Positions 33,463 through 42,895 of a stretch of 64,000 nt of DNA are shown here, in pieces. This DNA comes from Lysobacteraceae bacterium NML93-0399 (GTDB lineage: Bacteria > Pseudomonadota > Gammaproteobacteria > Xanthomonadales > Xanthomonadaceae). The stretch is from assembly GCA_002307375.1 (NCBI GenBank), contig NTJI01000001.1, forward strand, positions 1,116,001 to 1,180,000, read 5' to 3'. The notes beneath the pieces are model-generated. The model saw only the letters and a list, made by a program, of their open reading frames with translations, did no database searches and was not told the DNA's origin. The position numbers and the translations under genes are program-made. Within the stretch, counting starts at the first letter, position 1. Each line of letters starts with the position of its first letter.

Positions 33463-35521
<2,059 letters not shown>

Positions 35522-35587
35522 AGGCGGATTAGAACACGCCCCGCAACCCGACCCAACGTGTCGTCGCAATCGTTACCGCGAAAACCG

Positions 35588-35617
35588 TTGACGCCCCTCG
35601 GGTCGGCGTGATCCTCT
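35588..35617 (+). promoter_or_regulatory. Predicted promoter of the thr operon
   Basis: TTGACG (35588-35593), 18-bp spacer, and TCCTCT (35612-35617) preceded by TGA (extended -10 TGn). The -10 itself is weak. The predicted +1 falls at about 35624, the A of the leader ATG. The same arrangement is seen before the ilv leader at 42646-42675, which strengthens the call. Confidence 0.45.
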
Positions 35618-35623
35618 GCGGGA

Positions 35624-35776
35624 ATGCCGCACCGCACCAACCATCATGTCGCCACTGCGATCGCCGTCCCGGCGATCTCCGGCGCGCGTGCGGCTGCCGC
35701 ATCCATGGCCACCACCGTCACCACCACGGGCACCGGTACCACCGGGCACGGGATGTGGACGCGCGCCGCCAGTTGA
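35624..35776 (+). CDS. thrL: Threonine operon leader peptide
   Basis: A 50-codon ORF (MPHRTNHHVATAIAVPAISG... to TGA at 35774). Residues 30-40 read TTVTTTGTGTT, strikingly like E. coli ThrL (TTITTTITITT). It has 11 Thr and 2 Ile codons. It precedes thrA by 87 bp. An internal Met at 35705 would give a 23-residue version. Neither start has a Shine-Dalgarno sequence; the 35624 ATG coincides with the predicted transcription start, so leaderless translation is inferred. Ribosome stalling at the Thr run would control the attenuator immediately downstream. Confidence 0.75.
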   Translation: MPHRTNHHVATAIAVPAISGARAAAASMATTVTTTGTGTTGHGMWTRAAS

Positions 35777-35814
35777 TCTGACCGCCCGCTCCGCATCCCG
35801 ACCCGGGATGCGGA
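35750..35814 (+). promoter_or_regulatory. thr attenuator with mutually exclusive stems
   Basis: Segment A, GGGATGTGGA (35750-35759), lies just after the Thr codons. Segment B, TCCGCATCCCG (35790-35800), pairs with A over ten positions with one G-U. Segment C, CGGGATGCGGA (35804-35814), pairs perfectly with B around an ACC loop. A:B is the antiterminator and B:C the terminator-like hairpin. No T run follows C, so termination may rely on the very stable GC stem or on another mechanism. Confidence 0.65.
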
Positions 35815-35863
35815 CATCCGAGTCCCTCCCGCCGGCTGCGGAGCTCCAACCAGGAGCCCTCCG

Positions 35864-38380
35864 ATGTCCGCTGTCGCCCTGTCCCACCCGCCCGCCTCCG
35901 CCGCGCCAGCGCTTGCCTGCCACGTGCACAAGTTCGGCGGCAGCAGTCTTGCCGATGCCGAGCACATCGCCCGGCTCACCTCGCTCGTCGCGACCGATGC
36001 CCGCCTGCGCGTGGTCGTGGTGTCGGCGATGGCCGCGACGACCAATGCCCTGGTCGCACTCGCGGAATCGGCCGCCGCCGGACACGACTGGACGCCCGGT
36101 TGGGCACGGCTGCGCGCGCGGCACCTCGCCACCGCCGATACGTTCGAGCCCGACGCAGTCGGCGCGCTGCACCAGGCGCTGGAAGCCGAGCTGGGCGCGC
36201 TCGCGGATGATCTGCGCACGCTCGAGATCGCGCCGGCCGCGCACGAGCTCGCCGCCTGCCTAGCGCGCATCCACGGCTGCGGCGAACAGCTGTCCTCGCG
36301 CCTGGTGCAGGCCGCGCTCGGTGCCGATTGGCTGTGGCTGGATGCGCGCGAGGTCCTGGTCGTCCATGCCGGTGAGATGGGCGCCGTCGTCGACTGGCCC
36401 GCCAGCCGCGCAAGACTCGCCGCGTGGCGGATGGCCAAGGGGGCGCGCGATGTCGTGATCACCGGCTTCGTCGCTCGCGACGCCGATGGACGCGATACCA
36501 CGCTGGGCCGCAACGGCAGCGATTACTCGGCGGCGATCTTCGCCAGCCTCTTCGACGCCGACGCGCTGACGATCTGGACCGACGTCGACGGTGTGCTGTC
36601 AGCCGATCCGCGCCTGGTGCCCGACGCGGTCTGCCTGGAGACCCTTTCCTACGCGGAAGCCTGCGAGCTGGCGTACTTCGGCGCCGCCGTGCTGCATCCG
36701 CAGACACTGGCGCCGGTGCAGACCCGCGGCCTGCCAGTGCGCATCCGCAACAGCCGCAATCCTGCCGCCCCCGGCACGCTGATCACACCCGACGCCAGCC
36801 CGGCCGTCTCGCCGGTCAAGGGCCTGAGCCTGGTGCGCGATGTCGCGGTACTCGAACTCGTCGGCAGTGGCCTCGTCGGCGTCCCCGGCATGGCCGAGCG
36901 CCTGTTCGCGGCCCTGCACGGCGCTGGGGTCTCGGTGACGATGATCTCGCAGGGCTCGTCCGAGCATTCGATCTGTTGCGTGGTGCGCGCCGAACAGGCG
37001 CAACGCGGACACGACGCGATCGTCGAGGCCTTCGCCGATGCGATCGCGGAAGGACAAGCACAGGGCGTCGCGATGAGGGGCGACCTGTGCGTGCTGGCCG
37101 CGGTCGGCGACGGCATGGTTGGCACGCAGGGCGTCGCGGCGCGTCTGTTCGACGGCCTGGCGCAGGCGCGCGTCAACATCCGTGCGATCGCCCAGGGCGC
37201 GAGCGAACGCAACATCTCCGTCGCGATCGCGCAGGCCGATGCCACGCGCGCGCTGCGTGCCGCGCATGCCGCGTTCTGGCTCTCGCCGCAGACGGTGTCG
37301 GTCGGCGTCATCGGCCCGGGCAAGGTCGGGCGGGCATTGCTGGCCCAGCTCGGCGATGTGATCCCCGCCCTGCGCGCGCGTGCCGGCGTCGACCTGCGCC
37401 TGCGTGCAATCGCCGGCAGCCGGCGCATGCATCTGAGCCAGACGCCGCTCGACCCGGGCACGGCGGCCGCGCTGCTCGACGATGCCGCCGCTGTCAGCGA
37501 TCTCGACGCCTTCGCCGCGCACGTCCGTGCCGACCACCTGCCGCACGCGATGATCGTCGACTGCAGCGCAAGCGACGCGGTTGCGGACAGGTACGCTGGC
37601 TGGCTCGCCGCCGGCATCCACGTCGTCACGCCCAACAAGCACGCCGGTAGCGGCGACTGGGCACGTTACGCGTGCATCGCCGACGCCCGCGCCACCGGCC
37701 AGAGCCGCTTCCTGTACGAGGCGACCGTCGGCGCCGGCCTGCCGGTGATCGCGACCCTGCGCAATCTGCTCGACACCGGCGACAGCCTGCATGCGATCGA
37801 CGGCATGCTCTCGGGCACGCTGGCGTGGCTGTTCAACAGCTTCGACGGCAGCCGGCCGTTCTCCGAACTGGTGCGTCAGGCACGTGCGCTCGGCTACACC
37901 GAGCCCGATCCGCGCGACGATCTGTCCGGGCTCGACGTCGCGCGCAAGCTGGTGATCCTCGCGCGCGAGGCCGGCCTGCAGCTGTCACTGGACGACGTGG
38001 CGGTCGAGAGTCTGGTGCCCGAGGCGCTGAGCCATGTCCCGCTGGACGCATTCCTCGAGCGTCTGGGCGAACTCGACGCGCCGATGCAGGCGCGCCTGGA
38101 CGCTGCGCGCGCACAGGGCTGCGGCCTGCGCCACATCGCCCGGCTCGACGCCGACGGCACGGCCAGTGTTGGCGTGCGCGCGCTTCCCGACGATCATGCC
38201 TGCATGCACACGCGTCTGACCGACAACCTCGTCCAGTTCACCACCGCCCGCTATGCCGACAATCCGCTCGTCGTGCAGGGCCCGGGCGCCGGCCCGGAGG
38301 TCACGGCCGCCGGCGTGTTCGCCGACGTGCTGGGCATCGCCCATGCGCTCGGCGCCCGCACCGGCTGGCGGCACGCATGA
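35864..38380 (+). CDS. thrA: Bifunctional aspartokinase / homoserine dehydrogenase
   Basis: An 838-residue fusion catalysing the first and third steps from aspartate to homoserine. The N-terminal kinase has [11 protein letters not shown] (near residue 25) and [13 protein letters not shown]; two ACT-type segments follow ([53 protein letters not shown]), where threonine inhibits. The dehydrogenase begins near 475 with [17 protein letters not shown] and includes [12 protein letters not shown] and [12 protein letters not shown]. Size matches E. coli ThrA (820). Good AGGAG ribosome-binding site. Its TGA overlaps the thrB ATG. Confidence 0.97.
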
Positions 38381-39321
38381 GCATCTGGGCGAGCGCGTTC
38401 GCGCCGGCGAGTGTCGGCAACATCGGCGTTGGATTCGACGTGCTCGGCCACGTCATCGACGGCCCGCGTGACATTGCCAGGGTGCGGCGCATCGACGCGC
38501 TCGAGGTGCGCATCGACGGCATCGGCGGCGATGTCACCGGCGCCGAACGGCTGCCGCTGGCCGCCAGCGACAACACCGCCGGGCGCGCATTGCAGTCGCT
38601 GCGTACGGCGCTGTCACTGCCCTTCGGTTTCGCGCTGACGCTGGAGAAAGGCATCCCGCTGGGGTCGGGCATGGGCGGCTCGGCAGCGTCCTGCGTCGCG
38701 GCATTGGTGGCGGCAAACGCGCTGCTCGCGCAACCGCTGTCGCGCGAGGCCTTGTATCCGTTCGCACTCGACGGCGAGTCGGTCGCATCGGGCGCGCGCC
38801 ACGGCGACAACGTCGCGCCGATGCTGCTCGGCGGCGTGACCCTGTCGACATCGCAGCGCGCGATCGCGCTCGACGTGCCGTCGTGGCTGCACGCGGTGGT
38901 CGTGCATCCCGATCAGGTGCTGGAAACGCGTCGATCGCGCGCCGTGCTGGCGGCGCCCTACGCGCTGCACGATGTGGTGGCGCATTCGACGCACCTGGCG
39001 CTGTTCCTGACCGGCCTGCAGCGCGGCGATCGCGAGCTGATCCGCGACGGTCTGCACGATGTGCTGGTCGAACCCCGGCGTGCGCCGCTAATTCCCGGCT
39101 TCGATGCAGTCAAGACTGCGGCGCTGGCGCACGGTGCGCTGGGCGCGAGCATCTCCGGCGGCGGCCCCAGCGTGTTCGCCTGGTTCGATTCACTCGCAGC
39201 TGCCCGCGCCGCCGCCCCGATAATGCGCGCAGGCTTTCTGGACGTCGGCATCGAGGCGCGCGCCCACGTTTCGCCGGTGGCCGCCCCCCGCGCCGAGCTG
39301 TTCGAGCGGGACGGCGCATGA
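38377..39321 (+). CDS. thrB: Homoserine kinase
   Basis: A 314-residue GHMP kinase phosphorylating homoserine with ATP. It opens [24 protein letters not shown] and has the ATP-binding GHMP loop [20 protein letters not shown] near residue 95, and a C-terminal [16 protein letters not shown] 38377 overlaps the thrA stop by 4 bp (ATGA), so translation is coupled. It also overlaps thrC by 4 bp. Length is normal. Confidence 0.97.
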
Positions 39322-40604
39322 AGTTCGTCAGCACCCGCGGCAACGCGCCTGCGGTCGGCATCGACGCAGCCCTCGTGGCCGGTCTTGCGCCCGATGGCGG
39401 GCTCTACGTGCCCGAATCGATTCCGGCGCTGGATCTGGCCACGCCGCGCGCCACGCTGGCCGAAACCGCACATGCCTGCCTCGCACCGTGGTTCGCCGGC
39501 TCGCGCATCGAGGCGACGTTGGCGGATCTGTGCGCGCATGCGTTCGCATTCGACGCGCCGCTGCGTCCGCTCACGGGCGCGGGCGACCATCTGCTCGAGC
39601 TGTTCCACGGTCCCACCGCGGCCTTCAAGGATTACGCCGCACGCTTTCTTGCCGGCACGCTCGGCGCACTGCGCGATCCGCATGCGCCGGCCACGACGAT
39701 CCTTGTGGCCACGTCGGGTGATACCGGCGCGGCGGTCGCATCGGCCTTCCATCGCCGGCCCGGGTTTTCGGTGGTGATCCTGTATCCCGAGGGCCGCGTG
39801 TCACCGCGACAGGCGCACGGGCTGGAGTGCTGGGGCGACAACGTGCGCGCGTTCCGTATCGAGGGCAGCTTCGACGACTGCCAGCGCCTGGCCAAGCACG
39901 CCCTTTCAGACCCCGACCTGCGTGCACGCGTGCCGCTCGGCACCGCCAACAGCATCAGTCTGGGGCGCCTGCTGCCCCAGGCCGCGTACTACGCGCATGC
40001 CGCCGCGCACCATCAGGCGGCGACCGGTCGGCGGCTCGGTGTCATCGTGCCCACCGGCAATCTCGGCAACGCCAGCGCCGCCTGGCTGGCACGCGCGATG
40101 GGCGCGCCGCTCGGGGACATCCGGCTGGCCTGCAATGCCAACGACACGCTGCCGCGCTATTTCGCAGGCGACGCGTATACCGCGCAGGCGACGCGCGCCA
40201 CGCTTGCCAATGCGATGGATGTCGGCGCGCCGAGCAACTTCGAGCGGCTGCGCCATTGGCATGCGGACGACGACGCGCTGCGGCAGGCGTTCGCGGCCTG
40301 CAGCGTGGAAGACCCGACCATCCGCGAGACGATCCGCTGCGCGCCGACGCGACATGGCATCGTGCCCTGTCCGCACACTGCCACCGGCCTGCATCTGCTG
40401 GAGGCGCTGCGCCACGCTGGCGACAGCGGCGACTGGGCCGTCGTCGCCACCGCGCATCCGGCGAAATTCGACGCCATCGTCGAGCCGCTGGTCGGTCACG
40501 CGGTCGCGCCGCCTCCGGCGCTTGCGCGGTGCCTCGCACGTCCGGCGCGCGGCGACCGCCTGGCGGCAACGTCCGCCGCACTCGCCAGGGCACTGGTCGG
40601 CTGA
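39318..40604 (+). CDS. thrC: Threonine synthase
   Basis: A 428-residue PLP enzyme converting O-phosphohomoserine to threonine. It begins [19 protein letters not shown]. The PLP lysine is in [16 protein letters not shown] (near residue 105), and the phosphate-binding loop is in [16 protein letters not shown]. It shares an ATGA overlap with thrB, completing a tight thrABC operon, and is followed by a bidirectional terminator. Length matches the gammaproteobacterial class. Confidence 0.97.
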
Positions 40605-42645: not shown

Positions 42646-42675
42646 TTGACACCCGCGTCGCGGGCGTGGTTTTCT
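42646..42675 (+). promoter_or_regulatory. Predicted promoter of the ilv-leu operon
   Basis: TTGACA (42646-42651), 18-bp spacer ending in TGG (extended -10), then TTTTCT (42670-42675). Predicted +1 is at about 42683, the A of the leader ATG. The -35 is perfect; the -10 is weak. Confidence 0.5.
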
Positions 42676-42682
42676 CGAGCCC

Positions 42683-42832
42683 ATGACGCAGCGCAACAAC
42701 CACCCGCAGACCGCCATCGCCGCACGCCTCCAGGCGCGCGACGTGCGCCTGCCGGTCGCGCTTACCTCGGCCATTCTCCTTCTCGTACTCCTTATTACCG
42801 TCCTACCAGGCGCGGGAATGGGGTTCGCTTAG
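42683..42832 (+). CDS. ilv operon leader peptide
   Basis: A 49-residue ORF ending TAG at 42830. Residues 30-41 read [12 protein letters not shown], a dense run of Ile, Leu and Val codons, followed by PGAGMGFA. This is what an attenuation leader for branched-chain amino acid genes looks like (compare E. coli IlvL). There is no Shine-Dalgarno sequence, and ATG coincides with the predicted +1, so leaderless translation is inferred. Segment A of the attenuator lies within the codons just after the control run. Confidence 0.8.
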
Positions 42833-42895
42833 CAACACGAAGAAACCCACGGTCGAAAGAACCGAAACCCCGCGCCGAGAGGCGCGGGGTTTTTG
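42809..42895 (+). terminator. ilv attenuator: terminator and competing stem
   Basis: The terminator is AACCCCGCGCC (42866-42876), loop GAGA, GGCGCGGGGTT (42881-42891), then TTTT. GGCGCGGG at 42809-42816, inside the leader ORF, is exactly complementary to CCCGCGCC (42869-42876) in the terminator's left arm and can prevent it forming. GGGGTTCG (42820-42827) could extend the alternative pairing with CGAAACCCC. A ribosome stalled in the Ile/Leu/Val run would leave this segment free and allow read-through. Confidence 0.8.

What the first reader, a model, noticed from the sequence alone, without database searches (positions are those of the whole stretch)
35588..35814. Thr-rich leader peptide and attenuator for thrABC in a xanthomonad
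Seen: a 50-codon ORF with TTVTTTGTGTT at residues 30-40, followed by segments A (35750-35759), B (35790-35800) and C (35804-35814). A and C both pair with B. A lies a few bases after the Thr codons and before the leader stop, exactly where a stalled ribosome would leave it free. Known: E. coli thrL works this way with a very similar Thr run. Inference: threonine starvation permits A:B pairing and transcription into thrA. Odd: no U tract follows the B:C stem, so the termination step may differ from the enteric model.
Basis: partly seen in the sequence, partly recalled or inferred. Interest (0 to 1): 0.78.

Follow-up and report, generated by a model that had tools for sequence, protein, structure and literature searches.

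The report
Threonine leader switch lacking a terminator
Upstream of the threonine-making genes of Luteimonas lies a real threonine-rich leader peptide whose message can fold in competing ways, as in E. coli, but here the folding seems to end at the ribosome-binding site of the first gene instead of at a transcription stop signal, which would be a new version of a classic gene switch.

Summary
In detail: the Thr-rich leader (35624-35776) and segments A, B, C are where stated and pair as stated. The leader recurs upstream of thrA in the family and nearby: 131 of 145 distinct regions at a crude threshold, two not credible. In 125 of 129 leaders TTGAC lies 35-39 nt before the leader ATG, so the leader mRNA is probably leaderless.

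A:B, B:C and a further helix C:E are co-adapted in two deep groups tested separately; a Thr-codon:A helix and B:D have weaker support.

No run of five T occurs between leader stop and thrA ATG in 127 of 127 sequences, while the ilv leader 7 kb away has hairpin and U tract. The network runs into a hairpin over the thrA Shine-Dalgarno, strong where the leader exists and near 0 kcal/mol in three lineages without it, though one leaderless case keeps it.

Best reading: an E. coli thrL-like sensor with a different output, thrA translation initiation, perhaps followed by Rho. The direction of control is not shown; equilibrium folding does not reproduce starvation-ON.

The parts
35588..35593 (+). -35 box TTGACG of the likely leader promoter; TTGAC lies 35-39 nt before the leader ATG in 125 of 129 leaders tested
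35611..35616 (+). weak -10-like position (spacer 17); identity with TATAAT is low in the family (best match 2-4 of 6)
   Evidence: inference
35624..35776 (+). Thr-rich leader peptide, 50 aa; probably leaderless (ATG near the expected +1, no Shine-Dalgarno)
35711..35743 (+). regulatory codon run TTVTTTGTGTT (residues 30-40)
35714..35749 (+). segment P (Thr-codon region): possible protector helix with A
   Evidence: group 4, P with the 5' part of A, p=0.0004; group 1, P with A, p=0.008; the other two comparisons 0.097 and 0.57; a control (leader body with A) also gave 0.013 in group 1
35750..35772 (+). segment A, inside the leader codons; pairs with B
35779..35800 (+). segment B; pairs with A, C or D
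35804..35814 (+). segment C; pairs with B or E
35815..35832 (+). segment E, C-rich; pairs with C
35833..35846 (+). segment D; pairs with B or with the thrA Shine-Dalgarno
35847..35859 (+). thrA Shine-Dalgarno AGGAG (35852-35856) and its flank, 3' arm of the D:SD hairpin (GCUCC 35843-35847 with GGAGC 35853-35857)
35864..38380 (+). thrA, aspartate kinase-homoserine dehydrogenase
38377..39321 (+). thrB, homoserine kinase, overlapping thrA by ATGA; named from its position and sequence, no family search run
39318..40604 (+). thrC, threonine synthase; named from its position and sequence, no family search run

Best explanation
It is a threonine-sensing ribosome attenuator. SENSOR: a leader ORF, probably translated from a leaderless mRNA, has a run of Thr (and often Ile) codons, typically 5-10 Thr in 12 residues, just upstream of segment A. 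A ribosome waiting for Thr-tRNA leaves A free, and A pairs with B. A ribosome that reaches the leader stop sits in the loop of A:B and prevents it, so B pairs with C. This half is built like E. coli thrL. OUTPUT: it is not an intrinsic terminator. The structure continues: C can pair with E, B can pair with D, and D otherwise closes the thrA Shine-Dalgarno. So three segments (A, C, D) compete for B, and the end point is whether thrA can be translated. An untranslated, C-rich thrA 5' end would then be open to Rho. Shown by comparison: leader, promoter spacing, A:B, B:C, C:E, absence of a U tract, an unusually strong SD hairpin. Supported but weaker: P:A, B:D, and the tie of the SD hairpin to the leader (one exception). 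Inferred: that the SD hairpin is the regulated step, any role of Rho, and the direction (starvation = ON, by analogy only).
For: Thr-rich leader in 131 of 145 distinct regions at the crude threshold of 4 Thr in 12 (L090 and L130 among them not credible). Swap test within two deep groups (39 and 30 representatives): native A:B, B:C and C:E stronger than swapped at p<1/5000 in both; B:D p<1/5000 and 0.015; of ten control pairs none was below 0.05 in both groups. Longest T run between leader stop and thrA ATG is 1-4 in 127 of 127. thrA with leader: the stretch -32..-2 averages -10.6 kcal/mol (n=111) against -6.2 for 20 genes of the window (thrA itself not excluded); SD unpaired 0.21 against 0.49; Mann-Whitney about 1e-5 on 34 cluster means. 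thrA without leader: after a leuB-like gene (L126, L130, L136; one lineage) -1.7 to 0, after an ilvA-like gene (L171) 0, L084 -0.2 kcal/mol. Control in the same window: the ilv leader has a GC hairpin and T5; 9 of 9 clearly recognised ilv leaders, the window's own and 8 relatives, have it, while L252, with a shorter peptide, does not. Outside the order two thr leaders (L194, L196) end in hairpin plus U tract.
Against: The polarity does not come out of equilibrium folding: opening the SD region costs 11.0 kcal/mol with A free against 8.3 with a ribosome at the stop (costlier by >0.5 in 88 of 112, cheaper in 9, partly a length effect), and scrambling A changes it by only -0.34. The only conformer that frees the SD is B:D + C:E, which needs A masked. 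D:SD is co-adapted between clusters (22 of 35) but not within the two groups (p=0.59 and 0.83). A phylogeny-simulated covariation test found no significant pair (best E 0.35), and RNAalifold gave no consensus base pair on A1. Leaderless thrA are few and mixed: L102 (no leader found) keeps a -12.9 hairpin over its SD, and L184 has a -8.5 hairpin with the SD outside the stem.
Confidence: 0.55

Rival explanations
1. Rho-dependent transcription attenuation. With threonine in plenty B:C forms, the C-rich segment E and the thrA 5' end stay bare, and Rho loads. Under starvation A:B hides B and C:E hides E, so RNA polymerase passes. D:SD only delays thrA translation. This gives the expected polarity and uses C:E.
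For: C/G ratio is 1.9-2.05 in 78-nt windows starting 35821-35851 against about 1.0 for the whole window; C 41.5%, G 30.3% between leader stop and ATG over 112 sequences. E:D pairing is weaker than swapped in both groups (p 1.0 and 0.994), which keeps E free. No U tract.
Against: No Rho site can be shown by computation; E is C-rich partly because it must pair with G-rich C; it does not explain B:D.
Confidence: 0.22
2. Classical thrL: B:C is an intrinsic terminator that works without a U tract.
For: Same A/B/C plan as E. coli thrL (recalled); B:C strong (11 pairs) and co-adapted.
Against: No U tract in 127 of 127 sequences, although the window's ilv leader and 8 relatives keep one; 0 terminator-like sites at 35400-36000; it leaves C:E, B:D and the SD hairpin unexplained.
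Confidence: 0.1
3. Inverse switch: complete translation of the leader (threonine present) masks A, B pairs with D, C with E, and the thrA Shine-Dalgarno opens; failure to translate the leader shuts thrA off.
For: In the largest cluster (16 sequences) folding with a ribosome at the stop gives B:D 8.4, C:E 8.7 and D:SD 1.0 pairs, against 0.8, 6.4 and 5.1 with A free. Scrambling B or E closes the SD, scrambling D opens it when A is free.
Against: Physiologically backwards for a biosynthetic operon; in the larger Luteimonas and Lysobacter clusters (7, 8, 10) the stop state folds mostly as B:C with D:SD kept.
Confidence: 0.08
4. The leader only raises thrA translation by delivering ribosomes nearby (reinitiation); it does not sense threonine.
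For: Proposed for leader genes in general (PMC4833913, abstract passage seen).
Against: The Thr run is kept while the N-terminal part of the leader diverges (by eye); leader stop and thrA start lie 70-109 nt apart in 123 of 126; alternative helices are co-adapted.
Confidence: 0.04

Closest known systems
E. coli thrL attenuator (Rfam RF00506 Thr_leader; E. coli details recalled)
   Same: Thr/Ile codon run, A just after it inside the leader, B after the stop, competing A:B and B:C, upstream of thrABC
   Different: No U tract, no Rfam match, extra segments E and D and an SD hairpin, a longer leader, and a probably leaderless leader mRNA
Translational attenuators of the ermC type (recalled; ermC is called atypical in a passage of PMC2965389)
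   Same: Leader ribosome controls a hairpin that closes the Shine-Dalgarno of the next gene
   Different: Senses an amino acid through a codon run; most stall sites lie upstream of A, so a stall would not mask A as the ermC stall masks its first segment
Actinobacterial LEU element and translational T-boxes (PMC1262725, passages)
   Same: Amino-acid gene control proposed at the Shine-Dalgarno; LEU has a leader peptide with a codon run
   Different: Other phylum; there the codon run itself pairs with the SD, or tRNA is read by a T-box
Sinorhizobium meliloti trpL (PMC7298713, passages)
   Same: Attenuator leader peptide on an mRNA that starts with the ATG
   Different: A transcription attenuator for trp, in an alphaproteobacterium

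Membership tests
Enteric thr operon attenuator (thrL / RF00506) | leader ORF with a run of Thr/Ile codons upstream of thrABC | tested here: met
Enteric thr operon attenuator (thrL / RF00506) | mutually exclusive A:B and B:C helices | tested here: met
Enteric thr operon attenuator (thrL / RF00506) | terminator hairpin followed by a U tract | tested here: not met
   longest T run 1-4 in 127 of 127; 0 sites
Enteric thr operon attenuator (thrL / RF00506) | match to the Rfam model | tested here: not met
   no RF00506 match in the window thr leader or in 12 relatives at loose E-values
Enteric thr operon attenuator (thrL / RF00506) | premature transcript under threonine excess, read-through on starvation | not testable with these tools
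   needs RNA end mapping
Translational attenuator (ermC type) | hairpin closing the Shine-Dalgarno of the regulated gene | tested here: met
   (predicted structure only)
Translational attenuator (ermC type) | a stalled leader ribosome opens that hairpin | tested here: inconclusive
   equilibrium folding does not show it
Rho-dependent leader attenuator | C-rich, G-poor Rho loading region controlled by leader structure | tested here: inconclusive
   C/G up to about 2.0 near the thrA start; Rho binding itself not testable
Leaderless leader-peptide mRNA | transcription starts at the leader ATG | tested here: inconclusive
   TTGAC 35-39 nt before the ATG in 125 of 129, SD-like sequence before the ATG in 1 of 125, weak -10; no mapped 5' end

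The most novel reading that the evidence does not exclude
A family-wide amino-acid attenuator in gammaproteobacteria that has dropped its terminator: a leaderless Thr leader peptide steers a three-way competition for one RNA segment (A, C or D for B), and the winner decides whether the thrA Shine-Dalgarno is open. The E. coli-type sensor would be kept and its output moved from transcription to translation, possibly with the opposite sign.
Probability: 0.4. Interest if true: 0.72.

Novelty: new variant of a known kind. Interest (0 to 1): 0.52.

Why it matters
The thr attenuator is a textbook case, and its output is taken to be an intrinsic terminator. Here the sensor is kept across a family and the terminator is not, while the neighbouring ilv leader, here and in relatives, keeps its terminator. 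That makes a concrete test of how attenuators change output, and it warns that terminator-based surveys miss such elements. Nothing on a xanthomonad thr leader was seen in the held library with the searches (listings, plus passages of four papers); subscription papers, including a 2004 comparative study of proteobacterial attenuators (recalled, not seen), could not be checked.

Tried and rejected
Covariation with a phylogeny-simulated null: nothing significant; the null was very wide because low-change columns split deep clades, so I used swap tests and report both. RNAalifold found no consensus base pair on A1, so model R1 is sequence-only and was not used for searching. Equilibrium SD accessibility with and without A does not settle polarity. 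A stall that masks A was considered as the ON trigger: most Thr codons lie too far upstream, so rejected except perhaps for the last one (lastThr state). An intrinsic terminator was rejected on the U-tract count. Two terminator-detector hits among the 127 thr leaders (L019, L025) I ascribe to a T-rich stretch inside the leader codons (GTGTTTAT in L019), as no T-rich window follows B:C there.

Rows dropped: one search left out 6 loci with too little upstream DNA (L127, L061, L086, L089, L098, L104) and the two distant hits L106 and L107; 175 regions became 145 after removing duplicates. Some places listed were left out, mostly near contig ends; of the 110 computed there, 80 were fetched. One search found an SD-preceded thrA start for 126 of 131; 4 were set by hand and L090 dropped; L130, L043 and L087 were then dropped, leaving 127, and 112 after removing rows over 97% identical. 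In one search only groups 1 and 4 were large enough. One search used 68 of 112 sequences. Of 23 regions read, L204 showed coding sequence (probably wrong orientation) and is not counted.

Full report
What is there. The window lies in a Luteimonas-like genome: the closest named relative by ThrA is L. terrae, 87% identical in the best segment. A 50-codon ORF, 35624-35776, carries TTVTTTGTGTT at residues 30-40. It precedes thrA, 35864-38380, with the Pfam domains of aspartate kinase and homoserine dehydrogenase; thrB (38377) and thrC (39318) follow with overlapping starts and are named from position and sequence. The 124-nt stretch 35740-35863 is far more stable than shuffles (z -3.87).

Conservation. 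I collected 175 thrA upstream regions of the family and near relatives in the order, 145 distinct. 131 hold an upstream ORF with at least 4 Thr in 12 residues; L090 and L130 among them are not credible on inspection, and some of the 14 below threshold (L177, L046, L094, L118) show sparser Thr/Ile leaders by eye. The tail of the leader is conserved as RNA: in most, the A segment (GGTGCGG or close) sits about 21 nt before the leader stop, B (CCGCACC or close) after it, C (GGGTGCGG or close) next. In the order outside the own family, 22 regions were readable: the leader is seen in family f175 (4 genomes) and in 2 of 6 of f166 (G510, G516), and not in the sampled members of f165, f167, f168 and f172-f174. 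Outside the order 2 of 12 upstream regions of thrA-like genes (L194, L196) have a Thr leader, both with a hairpin and a U tract.

Promoter. In 125 of 129 leaders TTGAC lies 35-39 nt before an in-frame leader ATG (36-38 in 119), and only 1 of 125 has an SD-like sequence before it. With usual promoter geometry the ATG is at or near +1, so the leader is probably translated from a leaderless mRNA; median leader length 44 aa. The -10 is weak (best match to TATAAT 2-4 of 6). The ilv leader of this window has the same spacing (TTGACA 42646, ATG 42683); of 10 ilv loci tested, the window's own included, 9 have TTGAC 36-37 nt before the leader ATG and L252 does not. Leaderless attenuator leaders are known from S. 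meliloti trpL (PMC7298713, passages).

Co-adaptation. I asked whether a segment pairs better with its own partner than with the partner from other lineages. Over 112 sequences in 35 clusters, A:B, B:C, C:E, B:D and D:SD were better native (0 of 2000 permutations), while A:C, A:E, A:D, B:SD, C:SD, E:SD, B:E and E:D were not and C:D was marginal (0.036). Inside two deep groups separately (39 and 30 representatives) A:B, B:C and C:E held at p<1/5000 in both; B:D held at p<1/5000 and 0.015; D:SD did not hold (0.59, 0.83). Of ten control pairs, E:D was weaker than swapped in both groups, and single low values appeared for A:E in group 4 (0.037) and B:E in group 1 (0.025). With only the 5' part of D, B:D fell to 0.038 and 0.34. 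The Thr-codon region with A gave 0.008 (group 1) and 0.57 (group 4), and with the 5' part of A 0.097 and 0.0004; but the leader body upstream of the run, a control, also gave 0.013 with A in group 1, so support for an enteric-style protector is weak. The permutations treat clusters as exchangeable and do not model the tree; a tree-based null gave no significant pair.

No terminator. Between leader stop and thrA ATG the longest T run is 1 (36 sequences), 2 (66), 3 (19) or 4 (6) of 127; in the 8-nt windows after C at most 4 T occur, in 3 of 112. Rfam's Thr_leader gives no match in the window thr leader or in 12 relatives; the only family above its gathering score in the window is a TPP riboswitch on the other strand. 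Seven kb away the ilv leader (42683-42832) is followed by a GC hairpin and TTTTT. Among 30 ilvC upstream regions I recognise 9 branched-chain leaders (the window's own and 8 relatives); 9 of 9 have hairpin plus T-rich tail; L252, with a shorter peptide, has none; 5 further regions have such a hairpin without a recognised leader; the detector hits 2 of 127 thr leaders, both inside the leader codons as far as I can see. So the lack of a U tract is particular to the thr leader.

Shine-Dalgarno hairpin. D and the thrA SD form a hairpin: for example GCUCC-loop-GGAGC in the window and GGCCUC-loop-GAGGUC or GUCUCC-loop-GGAGAC in relatives. The stretch -32..-2 averages -10.6 kcal/mol in 111 thrA with leader against -6.2 for 20 genes of the window (20 of 34 candidate ORFs had a usable start; thrA itself not excluded), with SD unpaired 0.21 against 0.49. 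GC is somewhat higher (0.68 against 0.63), and against shuffles of the same letters 51 of 112 have z below -1 (mean -1.04). thrA that sits after a leuB-like gene (L126, L130, L136) or an ilvA-like gene (L171; gene names by eye), and L084, has no leader and no hairpin (-1.7 to 0). Other cases are mixed: L184 -8.5 with the SD outside the stem; L102, no leader found, -12.9 over the SD; L101, where A seems lost, -11.6; L090, L185, L186 and L187 have no clear start.

How it works. The sensing logic follows E. coli thrL (recalled): a ribosome waiting at Thr codons leaves A free and A:B forms; one at the leader stop sits in the A:B loop and B:C forms. What A:B and B:C do next must differ, because there is no U tract. 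Compatible sets are I (A:B, C:E, D:SD), II (B:C, D:SD) and III (B:D, C:E, SD free). Only III opens the SD. Folding with a ribosome at the stop gives III in the largest cluster and mostly II in the larger Luteimonas and Lysobacter clusters; with A free the mean over 112 is A:B 7.7, B:C 2.8, C:E 3.7, B:D 1.0 and D:SD 4.7 pairs, closest to I. Scrambling D opens the SD in the A-free state by 1.2 kcal/mol, scrambling B or E closes it by 1.0-1.8, scrambling A does almost nothing (-0.34). So equilibrium folding supports D as the SD-closing element and B and E as opening elements, but does not show starvation opening the SD; if anything the opposite. Either co-transcriptional kinetics decide, or Rho supplies the output (C/G reaches about 2 near the thrA start), or the sign is inverse. 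I put the SD/translation output first because the hairpin is unusually strong and mostly goes with the leader, and mark the direction as unknown.

Known or new. The sensor is a known kind. An output without intrinsic terminator, ending in an SD hairpin, with a leaderless leader, is a variant I saw in no paper of the held library (searches; passages of PMC1262725, PMC2965389, PMC4833913 and PMC7298713 seen). Rho-dependent leaders with codon-run peptides are recalled for Salmonella mgtCBR; only a search listing with abstract openings was seen.

Noticed in passing
window 42646-42895: Branched-chain leader peptide (42683-42832...[27 protein letters not shown]) before ilvC, followed by a GC hairpin and T5: a canonical attenuator, also with TTGACA 37 nt before its ATG, so probably leaderless. 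Matches Rfam leaders only below their gathering scores.
   Followed up: partly
window 35431-35525, minus strand: TPP riboswitch upstream of the divergent thiC-like gene (named by eye), back to back with the thr leader promoter.
   Followed up: no
L126, L130, L136; L171; L084: thrA behind a leuB-like or ilvA-like gene, or otherwise without leader, and without the SD hairpin.
   Followed up: partly
L101 upstream of thrA: B, C, D and the SD hairpin are present but the A segment seems missing between ACG codons and B; a natural test case or an assembly fault.
   Followed up: no
L102 upstream of thrA: No leader found, yet a D-like strong SD hairpin remains, preceded by a repeated GACCCCGTGCTC motif.
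   Followed up: no
segments E and D, SD and early thrA codons in relatives: Pairing of E with D, and of the SD with the first 45 nt of thrA, is weaker natively than after swapping in both groups, as if avoided.
   Followed up: no
L002 (G000:C2:393625-394809, minus): Second homoserine dehydrogenase-like gene in the same genome, 47% identical over residues 417-828, with a TGA inside the matched stretch.
   Followed up: no
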